Virus record (IMG/VR): IMGVR_UViG_3300020156_000446
Coordinates: 1-46,079 of that record
Source: a virus
Reading direction: 5' to 3' (one strand)
DNA length: 46,079 bases
Part shown: one piece after another, positions 17,702-21,000 of the stretch
Layout of the letters: each line of letters starts with the position of its first letter
Position numbering within the stretch: position 1 is the stretch's first letter
Program-made: the position numbers and the translations under genes
Notes under the pieces: model-generated
Databases searched by the model: none
What the model saw: only the letters and a program-made list of their open reading frames with translations
What the model was told of the DNA's origin: nothing

Positions 17702-17864
17702 AGCCGCCGATTAGCATCCTGTAGAGCCCCCGACAGATTGCTAATTCCGCCCTCGCTGGACCCGTTGGAAACCCTGGCCCAAATGCGTGTCCCTTGACAC
17801 GCCCCCAGCCCATCCATCACCCTCGCGCGCCCGTCTCCCCCACAGCGACCGCTCCGCAAGCCTC

Positions 17865-17899
17865 CGTGCGTTGCCACGCGCGCACCCGCCGCCGCACCC
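17865..17899 (+). promoter_or_regulatory. late promoter element G (terminase)
   Basis: CGTGCG-TTGCCA, 17 bp, GCACCC, then TCGCGGCC and the ATG of the small terminase gene at 17908. The element differs from the consensus by one base in TTGG. No ribosome-binding site stands before the ATG, so the transcript may be leaderless. The remaining region 17702-17864 holds half-operators but no gene that I can support. Confidence 0.65.
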
Positions 17900-17907
17900 T
17901 CGCGGCC

Positions 17908-18468
17908 ATGAGCGACGCACCCACCACCTCCGAACGCCTCGACCTGCCAGACCACGCCGCGCCGGCCCGCATCGGCCGCCCGCCCGTCTGGACGCCCGAG
18001 CGCATCGCCGAGGCGCAGGTAGCCATCCTCAACCACATCGCCGACGGCCGCTCGATCCGCCGCATCTGCGCCATGGACGACATGCCGGCGTGGGAGACGG
18101 TGCGTCGTTGGCTCCGTGATGACGTTGCGTTCGCAGCACAGTACGCGCGCGCCCGTGAGGCCGCCGCCGACCAGCTGGCGGCCCGCGTGGTCGACATCGC
18201 CGAGGACGTGGCCGACGGCAAGCTGGACGCCCAGGCAGGCCGGGCAGCCATCGACGGGCTGAAGTGGGCCGCCTCCAAGCTGAACGCCCGCGTGTACGGC
18301 GACCGCCTGGACCTGAACGCGAACGTCAACGTGACTGGGCAGGTGGCCGGCTACATCATCGACCTGAGGCCCGACGACGGGCGGACAGCAGTCCTCGATG
18401 GGACAGCGGTCCAGGCTGATGCAGCGCTCCCCGCGCCCACCGACCTACCAGATGTGGTGGCGGAATGA
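17908..18468 (+). CDS. terminase small subunit
   Basis: 186 aa starting MSDAPTTSERLDLPDHAAPA. ARIGRPPVWTPERIAEAQVA, RSIRRICAMDDMPAWETVRR and WLRDDVAFAAQYARAREAAA form the DNA-binding helical domain typical of Sf6-type small terminases; AARVVDIAEDVADGKLDAQA follows. It recognises the packaging site and regulates the large subunit. The start immediately follows a late promoter element and lacks a ribosome-binding site. The large subunit is encoded 775 bp downstream, after a GC-rich stretch and a kinase-like gene. Confidence 0.85.
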   Translation: MSDAPTTSERLDLPDHAAPARIGRPPVWTPERIAEAQVAILNHIADGRSIRRICAMDDMPAWETVRRWLRDDVAFAAQYARAREAAADQLAARVVDIAEDVADGKLDAQAGRAAIDGLKWAASKLNARVYGDRLDLNANVNVTGQVAGYIIDLRPDDGRTAVLDGTAVQADAALPAPTDLPDVVAE

Positions 18469-18781
18469 AGTCCGTAGCGAATAATCTCGGGACAGCGCTG
18501 AAACGCCTTGCGCATCAACGGCTTGGGCTCACTGCGAAAGTCGCAGAGGTAGCAATATGGAAAGCGGATGCCGCCCCGCCTGTGACTGCCGTCCGCTCCC
18601 CTGTCCTATCGCCCGCCGTCCGGGCCGCCCGGTCGAGGGGGTGGGGGTGGGGTCGCGCGGGCCGGCGCGCCGCGGGCCGGGGCGGGGGCAAAAACGCGCG
18701 CCTCGTCCCTCTGCGGGGCATCCTCTCACAACTTTTCCCCTCCCCCAAGTGCGTAACATTCTGTCGTGAGGCCGTGACCGC
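18469..18781. other. GC-rich intergenic stretch with G-quadruplex potential
   Basis: This gap between the terminase small subunit gene and the kinase-like gene has an open frame of 106 codons from an ATGA overlap at 18465, but its product is a run of Arg/Gly/Ala residues typical of shadow frames, so I do not call it. At 18637-18661 four G tracts (GGGGG, GGGGG, GGGG, GGG) are separated by loops of one to six bases; another three G tracts lie at 18674-18689. A packaging site is a reasonable guess from location beside terminase genes. Confidence 0.4.
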
Positions 18782-19240
18782 ATGAGTTCCCTTGCAGACC
18801 TGCCGCGCACCGTCCAGATGGAACTGAACGACCTGTTCGTGGGCGACCTGATCGGCGCGGGCACGTATCGCGAAGTCTACGCGCACGCGCTGGATCCATC
18901 GTTGGTCGTGAAGGTCGAGTTGCGCCCCCGCGGTTTCAGCAACGTGGCGGAGTGGGAGGTTTGGCAGGAATCGGAGGGCTACCCCGACATCCGCCGATGG
19001 CTGGCGCCTTGCGTCGCGATCTCGTTCTCCGGCTCCGTGCTCGTCCAGCGCCGTACGCAGCCCATCACCCGCCTGCCGAAGGAGTTGCCGGACTTCCTGT
19101 GCGACATCAAGCGCTCGAACTTCGGCCGGATCGGGCGGCAGGTCGTCGCCCACGACTACGGCAACCACCCGCACTACACGCGCAGCTTCCGGAGGTGGCG
19201 GATGCGGCCCGTGTCGGCCGATGACATGGTGAGGATTTAG
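18782..19240 (+). CDS. miniature protein-kinase-like protein, 152 aa
   Basis: The protein carries the ordered core motifs of the kinase fold in a very short chain. The nucleotide loop is GAGTYREVY (25-33), the strand with the ATP-binding lysine is LVVKVE (K44), a helix with acidic residues is at 53-65 (NVAEWEVWQESEG), the catalytic loop is DIKRSN (D108, K110, N113), and the metal motif is DYG (D125-G127), 12 residues past N113 as in real kinases. The large C-lobe after DYG is reduced to about 25 residues. It lies 2 bp before the large terminase gene. Phosphotransfer activity is untested; it may be a structural relic or a minimal kinase. Confidence 0.6.
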   Translation: MSSLADLPRTVQMELNDLFVGDLIGAGTYREVYAHALDPSLVVKVELRPRGFSNVAEWEVWQESEGYPDIRRWLAPCVAISFSGSVLVQRRTQPITRLPKELPDFLCDIKRSNFGRIGRQVVAHDYGNHPHYTRSFRRWRMRPVSADDMVRI

Positions 19241-19242
19241 GT

Positions 19243-21000
19243 ATGGCGGCGGATCCGCAGGGAACTGATGCCTTTCTTGTTGACCTGCGCTCCCATGCCT
19301 CACGTGTCGGCGGTGCGCATGGGCAGGCGCTGGCGGCGGCAGCCGACGACCTGGAGAAGGCGACGGTCGCCTACTACGCGCTCCCGGTCGGTGTTACGCC
19401 CGAAGCCTCGGCGGCGGCGCGGGATGCGATGCTCGCCAGCCGGAAGCGCGCGGTGGATGCCCTGGCAGCGGCGAAGGGGCGGCGAGAGGGCGTTCCTGCC
19501 GGCATGGTGACCTACCGCCCCGACGGCGAGACGCTGCGGCAGTTCCTGATGAACCGGGCGTCGCGACTGCTGTGCATCCAGGGGCCGGTCGGGTCGGGTA
19601 AGTCGACGGCTTCGGCCATGTTCCTGTTCCAACTGGCGGTGACGCAGCAGCCGGGCCCGGACGGGAAGCGCCGCACCAAGTTCCTGGTGGTGCGCAACAC
19701 GTTCAACGAGTTGAAGACCACCACCATCGCGACGTGGAAGGCGCTGTTCCCCGAGGGGGTGTATGGCAAGTTCTACGACACGCCGCCCTTCAAGCACGAG
19801 ATGCGGTGGGCGGACGTCGAATGCGACGTGCTGTTCATGGCGATGGACGACGAGGCCGACCGGAAGAAGCTGCTGTCGCTGGAGATCACGGCGGCCTGGG
19901 TGAACGAGGCGCGCGAGGTGCCGCGGGCGATCATCTCGACGCTGATGGAGCGCATCGGCCGGTATCCCCGGATGATCGAGGGCGGTCCGACGCGCTCGTG
20001 CGTGGTGCTGGACACCAACGCCCCGGCGGACGACCACTGGATCCCGATCATGCGGGGCGACGTGCCGCCGCCGGCCGGGCTGAGCGAGGATGAGCGCCGG
20101 GCGCTGGTGAAGCCGGACGACTGGGCGTTCTTCAACCAGCCGGGCGGGCTGGCGGAGGTCACCGACGACGAGGGCAACCACGTCCGGTTCGAGCCCAACC
20201 CGCTCGCCGAGAACACGCGCTTCCTGCCGCCCGGCTATTACGAGAACGCGGCGAAGGGCCGGCCGGTGGACGAGTGCCGGATTTCGCTGTGCAACCAGCT
20301 GGGCCGGATGAAGGCCGGCAAGCCGGTGTGGCCGATGTTCAAGCCGGCGCTGCACGTGGCGAAGCAGGAACTGTTGCCGGTCGAGGGGCATCCGATCCAG
20401 GTGGGCGTCGACTTCGGGCTGACGCCGGCCGCGCTGATGGGCCAGCACATCAACGGCCGGTGGCTGATCCTGGACGAGTTGGTGGCGGACAGCGACGCCG
20501 GCATGGGCGCCATCACGTTCGCGCCGCTGCTGAAGCGCGAGTTGGCCTCGCGGTTCCCCGGCTTCCGGTACAGCCTGACCGGCGATCCGGCCGGCGACCA
20601 GCGCGCGCAGAGCGATGAGCGCACCCCGTTCATGATCTTCCGGGCGGCCGGGCTGCCGATCCTGCCGGCCTCCACCAACGATTTCACGGTGCGCAAGGAG
20701 GCGGTGGAGAGCGCGCTGAACCGCCTGGTCAACGGCTACCCCGGCCTGCTGATCTCTCCCCGGTGCGTCCGGTTCCGCGCCGCGGTCGAATGGGGCTACC
20801 GCTACGCCAAGCTGAAGACCGGCGGCGACCGCTACAGCGAGGCCCCGGTGAAGGACGAGCACTCGCACGTCGCCGACGCCGGGCAATACCTGCTGCTGGG
20901 CGGCGGGGAGGGCCGCATGCTCCTGACCGGCTCCGCCGCGCGCAAGGCCCCCGTGAACGCCAAGGTGGCGTGGTCTCCGCACTCGCGGAGCCGCCGATGA
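19243..21000 (+). CDS. terminase large subunit
   Basis: 585 aa. The ATPase half has Walker A GPVGSGKS (114-121) and a Walker B-like segment SLEITAAWVNEARE; the coupling region includes VVLDTNAPADDHW. The RNase-H-like nuclease half shows VGVDFGLTPAALM, then a typical DPAGDQRAQSDERTPF segment and SHVADAGQYLLLGGG. It cuts and pumps phage DNA into proheads, docking on the portal encoded downstream. Length and motif order are normal. It starts 2 bp after the kinase-like gene and overlaps the next gene by 4 bp. Confidence 0.92.
   Translation: MAADPQGTDAFLVDLRSHASRVGGAHGQALAAAADDLEKATVAYYALPVGVTPEASAAARDAMLASRKRAVDALAAAKGRREGVPAGMVTYRPDGETLRQFLMNRASRLLCIQGPVGSGKSTASAMFLFQLAVTQQPGPDGKRRTKFLVVRNTFNELKTTTIATWKALFPEGVYGKFYDTPPFKHEMRWADVECDVLFMAMDDEADRKKLLSLEITAAWVNEAREVPRAIISTLMERIGRYPRMIEGGPTRSCVVLDTNAPADDHWIPIMRGDVPPPAGLSEDERRALVKPDDWAFFNQPGGLAEVTDDEGNHVRFEPNPLAENTRFLPPGYYENAAKGRPVDECRISLCNQLGRMKAGKPVWPMFKPALHVAKQELLPVEGHPIQVGVDFGLTPAALMGQHINGRWLILDELVADSDAGMGAITFAPLLKRELASRFPGFRYSLTGDPAGDQRAQSDERTPFMIFRAAGLPILPASTNDFTVRKEAVESALNRLVNGYPGLLISPRCVRFRAAVEWGYRYAKLKTGGDRYSEAPVKDEHSHVADAGQYLLLGGGEGRMLLTGSAARKAPVNAKVAWSPHSRSRR

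What the first reader, a model, noticed from the sequence alone, without database searches (positions are those of the whole stretch)
18782..19240. Minimal kinase-like protein of 152 residues between the terminase genes
GAGTYREVY, VVK (K44), D108-I-K110-R-S-N113 and D125-Y-G127 occur in the order and with nearly the spacing of the ATP loop, VAIK lysine, catalytic loop and DFG motif of protein kinases, yet the chain ends 25 residues after DYG, without the usual large C-lobe. A kinase of this size would be exceptional. Its place directly before the packaging ATPase gene suggests a packaging or virion link.
Basis: partly seen in the sequence, partly recalled or inferred. Interest (0 to 1): 0.75.

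Follow-up and report, generated by a model that had tools for sequence, protein, structure and literature searches.

The report
Miniature phage kinase without its C-lobe
A small phage gene lying between the two DNA-packaging genes encodes a stripped-down protein of the kinase superfamily: it keeps the ATP-binding half and all the catalytic residues but lacks almost the whole second half, and it belongs to a widespread, uncharacterised phage family.

Summary
ORF 18782-19240 (+, 152 aa) lies between terS and terL and carries every motif quoted. It belongs to PHROG 4301 (unknown function; E 3e-29). AlphaFold2 predicts, confidently (pLDDT 93), a kinase N-lobe plus catalytic loop, beta7-beta8 hairpin and DYG, without the alpha-D, E or F helices. 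Foldseek's 50 best PDB matches are all kinase-superfamily folds, led by the minimal kinases OspG and HopBF1 and by Rio2. A second PHROG 4301 branch (115-138 aa) often ends 2-5 residues after the DYG Asp. So it is a C-lobe-less kinase-superfamily protein with an intact catalytic set. Activity and substrate are unproven. "Exceptional" is partly right: C-lobe-less phage kinase domains were described in 2017, and some GenBank records already call relatives kinases. The packaging link is weak to moderate: the gene lies near terL more often than chance predicts, in varied orders, but in Yuavirus it sits in an early/DNA-metabolism block, and five sampled phages with related TerL (BcepC6B-type) lack it, so it is accessory cargo there.

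The parts
18782..19240 (+). Miniature kinase-superfamily protein, 152 aa, PHROG 4301 family
18854..18880 (+). Glycine-rich loop GAGTYREVY (residues 25-33) between beta1 and beta2; R30 invariant in 86 relatives
18911..18913 (+). K44, the beta3 (VAIK-type) lysine; invariant
18950..18952 (+).
19103..19120 (+). Catalytic loop D108-I-K-R-S-N113 (D108 invariant, K110 85/86, N113 84/86)
19154..19162 (+). D125-Y-G127, the DFG-equivalent after the beta7-beta8 hairpin; D125 and Y126 invariant
17794..18468 (+). Terminase small subunit (context)
   Evidence: phrog_1482
19243..21000 (+). Terminase large subunit (context); BcepC6B-type relatives

Best explanation
The gene encodes a C-lobe-less member of the protein-kinase superfamily (PHROG 4301), most likely a working ATP-dependent phosphotransferase. 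Shown by sequence and model: a kinase N-lobe (beta1, Gly-rich loop, beta2, beta3 with K44, alpha-C with E57, beta4, beta5) joined by a short helix-free linker to a catalytic loop (D108, K110, N113), a beta7-beta8 hairpin and DYG (D125), after which the chain almost ends. Inferred from the superfamily: K44-E57 anchors ATP, N113 and D125 bind Mg2+, and D108 and K110 catalyse transfer of the gamma-phosphate. Because the usual substrate-binding C-lobe is absent, the substrate or a partner protein probably completes the active site. Further inference: it is an accessory phage gene that modifies a host (or phage) protein during infection. The substrate is unknown.
For: PHROG 4301, E 3.3e-29. Invariant K44, E57, D108, D125 (86/86) and N113 84/86, including 12 relatives not selected on these residues. 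pLDDT 93.1, pTM 0.86, with motif residues at the expected secondary-structure positions. The 50 best PDB matches are all kinase-superfamily folds, led by OspG, Rio2 and HopBF1, E 1e-4. VIA-align Z up to 9.2 to kinases and APHs, 33 chains at Z >= 8. Weak sequence hits mostly point the same way: OspG 0.27, Rio2 0.23 and NleH1 0.92, YrbL in 14 of 86 members. A second branch of PHROG 4301 keeps the same residues and topology.
Against: No activity data. Sequence matches to known kinases are individually non-significant. Foldseek TM-scores are modest (0.4-0.5 of the query), as expected if half the kinase fold is missing, but still modest. A protein without alpha-E/alpha-F could bind ATP without transferring phosphate.
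Confidence: 0.7

Rival explanations
1. Catalytically weak or dead ATP-binding pseudokinase: the miniature N-lobe acts as a nucleotide-sensing adaptor for a partner rather than as an enzyme.
For: Loss of alpha-E/alpha-F and of the HRD histidine-arginine (family has F/L-T-D); some short-branch members end 2-5 residues after the DYG aspartate, leaving no activation segment.
Against: K44, E57, D108 and D125 invariant and K110/N113 at about 98% over 86 diverged sequences is not the pattern of a pseudokinase, which typically loses one of them.
Confidence: 0.15
2. Kinase acting on RNA, nucleotides or a small molecule rather than protein, in the manner of the archaeal tRNA kinase ArkI or of aminoglycoside phosphotransferases.
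For: Archaeal RNA kinase structures (7vnx, 8yv4, 8yv5) and APH(2'') are among the fold matches; no protein-substrate groove remains; many relatives sit in DNA/nucleotide metabolism blocks.
Against: The lysine two residues after the catalytic Asp (D-x-K-x-x-N), 85/86, is the Ser/Thr protein-kinase form of the loop (superfamily knowledge); the fold cannot tell substrate classes apart.
Confidence: 0.2
3. Packaging-specific kinase that phosphorylates a terminase, portal or head protein.
For: In 16 of 48 records with both genes the kinase gene lies within 1.6 kb of terL on the same strand (expected 5.6; 13 of 37 against 2.7 for records over 30 kb); immediate neighbours include TerL, portal, terS and MuF head proteins more often than more distant genes do.
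Against: Order is not conserved (terL-KIN, KIN-terL, terS-KIN-terL, KIN-x-terS-terL); it is 6-50 kb from terL in many records, and in Yuavirus lies in an early block; five phages with related TerL lack the family entirely; the proximity counts are not corrected for shared ancestry.
Confidence: 0.15
4. Chance resemblance of motifs in a protein of unrelated fold.
For: None beyond the fact that the sequence matches to known kinases are individually non-significant.
Against: Family-wide invariance and fold prediction.
Confidence: 0.02

Closest known systems
PHROG 4301 (phage protein family, unknown function)
   Same: Full-length family match (E 3e-29); includes YuA gp39, PaMx11 gp73, Lacusarx gp62 and Pan1 gp02, some members labelled kinase in GenBank
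   Different: Nothing structural; the window copy sits between terS and terL and lacks the C-terminal K-x-x-W motif common in the family
OspG / NleH minimal effector kinases
   Same: Best Foldseek match (OspG 1.2e-4); reduced kinase fold with intact catalytic residues
   Different: No significant sequence relation; 159-171 residues in the solved chains against 152 here, and the phage model has no helix between beta5 and the catalytic loop; OspG is activated by host E2~ubiquitin (PMC11078946), absent from bacteria
HopBF1
   Same: Minimal atypical kinase, Foldseek 2.5e-4, VIA-align Z 7.8 (rmsd 4.7, 127 aligned)
   Different: Larger (175 residues in the structure); secreted effector acting on HSP90; no significant sequence match (NCBIfam 0.11 in one member)
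C-lobe-less kinase domains of polyvalent proteins (Iyer et al. 2017, PMC5512222)
   Same: Phage kinase domains that lost the entire C-terminal subdomain but keep the active site; [quoted passage not shown] stand-alone versions exist
   Different: Described mostly from Verrucomicrobia-Chlamydia and Bacteroidetes (pro)phages and often as parts of large multidomain proteins; have a conserved His, an insert before the catalytic Asp and a Glu before strand 2, not seen here. Direct sequence comparison was not possible
RIO kinases and YrbL (PF10707)
   Same: Rio2 among top fold and profile hits; YrbL shares GxGxxRxxY and a following lysine
   Different: Both have longer chains (YrbL 210 aa; Rio2 chains about 270 residues); sequence similarity confined to the Gly loop-beta3 region and not significant

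Membership tests
PHROG 4301 | Match to the family profile over most of the protein | tested here: met
   E 3.3e-29, residues 13-132
Protein-kinase superfamily | Gly-rich loop, beta3 Lys, alpha-C Glu, catalytic Asp, Mg-binding Asn and DFG-type Asp, in order and conserved | tested here: met
   K44, E57, D108, D125 86/86; N113 84/86; G27 85/86
Protein-kinase superfamily | Kinase N-lobe and catalytic-core topology | tested here: met
   Predicted model pLDDT 93.1; top 50 PDB matches all kinase-superfamily; VIA-align Z up to 9.2
Protein-kinase superfamily | Complete C-lobe with alpha-E and alpha-F | tested here: not met
   No helix between beta5 (86-90) and the catalytic loop, 25 residues after DYG. 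It works like a reduced member rather than being a canonical kinase
Protein-kinase superfamily | Phosphotransfer activity | not testable with these tools
   -
OspG/NleH or HopBF1 minimal kinases | Sequence-family match | tested here: not met
   phmmer OspG 0.27; profile NleH1 0.92; NCBIfam HopBF1 0.11 in one member
OspG/NleH or HopBF1 minimal kinases | Reduced kinase fold | tested here: met
   Best Foldseek matches
C-lobe-less kinases of polyvalent proteins | Loss of the C-terminal subdomain with intact active site | tested here: met
   description
C-lobe-less kinases of polyvalent proteins | Conserved Gln in the last N-lobe strand | tested here: met
   Q89 66/86, Met in the other 20
C-lobe-less kinases of polyvalent proteins | Glu before strand 2; conserved His with an insert before the catalytic Asp | tested here: not met
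   Position 31 variable (E in 13/86), no conserved His directly before D108; the published alignment could not be read
YrbL (PF10707) | Score above Pfam's gathering cut-off | tested here: not met
   14.2 bits against 31.5; 14 of 86 members match weakly, best E 0.0015
Virion or packaging protein | Conserved linkage to terminase genes | tested here: inconclusive
   Enriched near terL but not conserved
Virion or packaging protein | Presence in virions | not tested
   The 'structural protein' label in PAC9 is given to many neighbouring genes and carries no weight; the YuA proteome paper is not held

The most novel reading that the evidence does not exclude
PHROG 4301 proteins are the smallest free-standing active kinases known: a single N-lobe with a catalytic loop (down to about 115 residues in the short branch, ending just after the DYG motif) that becomes a complete enzyme only when it docks on its substrate or on a phage partner such as terminase, whose surface supplies the missing C-lobe.
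Probability: 0.3. Interest if true: 0.85.

Novelty: new variant of a known kind. Interest (0 to 1): 0.58.

Why it matters
The kinase C-lobe is normally held to be needed for substrate binding and for holding the catalytic loop. A large natural family that keeps every catalytic residue while dropping almost the whole lobe would make the minimal requirements of phosphotransfer directly testable. Only two phage protein kinases are counted as characterised (T7 and 933W, per PMC8008677), so a family found in about 90 sequenced phage records, including many P. aeruginosa phages, is a practical route to a new way in which phages modify their hosts.

Tried and rejected
Single-protein and first alignment scans of IMG/VR and the GTDB genome scan found no relatives. 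The PDB profile search with the first 15 sequences gave only an unrelated chance hit. NCBIfam and PADLOC gave nothing significant, so it is not a listed defence protein. hhalign against E. coli YrbL aligned only 26 residues at the Gly loop (probability 11%, E 0.0028), better than two unrelated controls (E about 0.2) but not conclusive. I considered whether the conserved catalytic residues were an artefact of the DNA pattern used to collect loci: the pattern fixes D108, K110, N113, G115 and DYG, but not K44, E57, R30 or N54, and 12 relatives found without it show the same conservation. N-terminal extensions of some ORFs (L047, L050, L087) looked like possible fusions but read as frame read-through upstream of the real start (judged by eye). 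I rejected reading the PAC9 label 'structural protein' as virion evidence. Papers on R26L, Lydia and related phages say nothing about this gene's function.

Full report
Observation. It lies between a terminase small subunit gene (17794-18468, phrog_1482) and the large subunit gene (19243-21000, phrog_2); the terL ATG follows two bases after its stop codon. The window is an IMG/VR virus record.

Family. The protein matches PHROG 4301, a family without assigned function, at E 3e-29. tblastn finds 95 phage records, mostly Yuavirus and other Pseudomonas phages, also Sphingomonas, Stenotrophomonas, Dinoroseobacter, Erythrobacter and Vibrio phages; most are annotated hypothetical, a few as kinase (AN14, Lydia, PAKlein3, XM05, and 'cyclin-dependent kinase-like 5' in Pan1). 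IMG/VR scans gave over 100 further relatives. Weak relatives lie on Rhizobium, Agrobacterium and Methylobacterium plasmids.

Conservation. In an alignment of 86 diverged members (29-56% identical to the window protein), R30, K44, N54, E57, A75, P103, D108, G115, D125 and Y126 are invariant; G27 85/86, K110 85/86, N113 84/86. Many members were collected with a DNA pattern that fixes the catalytic-loop and DYG residues, so for those residues the unbiased evidence is the 12 relatives from the search for related loci (K44, E57, D108, D125 12/12; N113 10/12) and the 15-sequence alignment headed by the window protein, in which K44, E57, D108, N113 and D125 are all invariant.

Structure. AlphaFold2 with the 86-sequence alignment and no templates gives pLDDT 93.1 and pTM 0.86. 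Strands 20-26, 30-35 and 41-46, helix 53-66, strands 77-80 and 86-90, then a linker without helices, catalytic loop, strands 114-117 and 120-123, and DYG: this is the kinase N-lobe plus the catalytic and metal-binding loops, without alpha-D, alpha-E or alpha-F. Foldseek against the PDB returns OspG (1.2e-4), Rio2 (1.9e-4) and HopBF1 (2.5e-4) first, and kinase-superfamily folds for all 50 listed. VIA-align gives Z up to 9.2 (rmsd 4.0, 135 aligned) for kinases and aminoglycoside phosphotransferases. Among viral models the nearest are family members, then jumbo-phage proteins and viral kinases.

A shorter branch. Fifteen distant members (115-138 aa) from AT-rich and large phages, all also PHROG 4301, keep the R, K, N-x-x-E, D-x-K-x-x-N-x-G and DY residues, and several end 2-5 residues after the DYG aspartate. 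Their model (pLDDT 85.8) has the same topology and matches Rio2, Mps1 and the RNA kinase Ark1. These members were all found by the DNA pattern, so their D, K, N and DYG are selected; the Gly-loop R, the lysine and N-x-x-E are not.

Genome context. In the records with both genes that could be placed, the kinase gene is within 1.6 kb of terL on the same strand in 16 of 48 (5.6 expected for random placement), and in 13 of 37 records over 30 kb (2.7 expected). Immediate neighbours matched TerL, portal, terS or MuF/minor head families in at least 24 of 152 cases, against 3 of 78 for genes at least five genes away (Fisher p 0.005; hand-tallied from per-family counts, so approximate). Orders differ: terL-KIN in Nanhaivirus-like phages, KIN-terL, terS-KIN-terL here, KIN-peptidase-terS-terL. 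These counts do not correct for shared ancestry. In Yuavirus and relatives the gene is in an early or DNA-metabolism block, kilobases from terL. Among five phages with TerL related to the window's (BcepC6B, Hodr, Mwe-JY08, MEP301, RHph_TM3_14A) none has the family anywhere; BcepC6B has terS and terL only 132 bases apart. So the gene is dispensable for this type of packaging motor, and the spot next to terL looks like a place where small accessory genes accumulate.

Mechanism. Shown: family, conservation, predicted fold. Inferred: ATP binding by K44-E57 and the Gly loop, Mg2+ by N113 and D125, catalysis by D108 with K110. Because the C-lobe that normally binds the substrate and braces the catalytic loop is missing, a partner or the substrate itself probably completes the site; OspG, which binds E2~ubiquitin to activate its kinase activity, is the precedent (PMC11078946). 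A host target in infection, as for the T7 kinase, is the most natural guess for the substrate; it is not shown.

Known or new. Iyer et al. 2017 (PMC5512222) described phage kinase domains lacking the entire C-terminal subdomain, mainly in polyvalent proteins of Verrucomicrobia-Chlamydia and Bacteroidetes prophages; the present family shares the principle and a conserved Gln in the last N-lobe strand but not the other described signatures, and direct comparison was not possible. Hence a new variant of a known kind. What appears not to be described in the papers searched is that PHROG 4301 as a whole is such a kinase-like family, that it is widespread in tailed phages, and that its shortest members end at the DYG motif.

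Noticed in passing
window 18465-18785 (+): A 106-codon ORF overlaps the terS stop and the kinase start by ATGA-type overlaps, but is low-complexity and extremely GC-rich with long G tracts; it may be non-coding (BcepC6B has only 132 bases between terS and terL).
   Followed up: partly
L153 (pAMS5a) and L154 (pRphaN671a): Relatives of the miniature kinase on Methylobacterium and Rhizobium plasmids, beside ParA/ParB-type and mobF relaxase genes.
   Followed up: no
L043, L054, L057, L077, L091, L105, L107, L108, L110, L111, L117, L118, L142, L145, L146: A shorter branch of PHROG 4301 (115-138 aa), several members ending 2-5 residues after the DYG aspartate.
   Followed up: yes
L133:3-662 and L133:647-1501 (minus strand): Two neighbouring ORFs on a 67-kb viral contig both carry diverged kinase-like domains of this family behind long N-terminal regions, a possible tandem duplication.
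   Followed up: no
L101, L106, L141, L149 downstream of the kinase gene: MuF-type head morphogenesis proteins lie directly downstream of the kinase gene; four downstream neighbours also match the Bxa ADP-ribosyltransferase family phrog_16625.
   Followed up: partly
L177 (MEP301) around terL: Three tiny ORFs between terS and terL and a putative acetyltransferase directly after terL: the terminase neighbourhood appears to gather small accessory genes.
   Followed up: no
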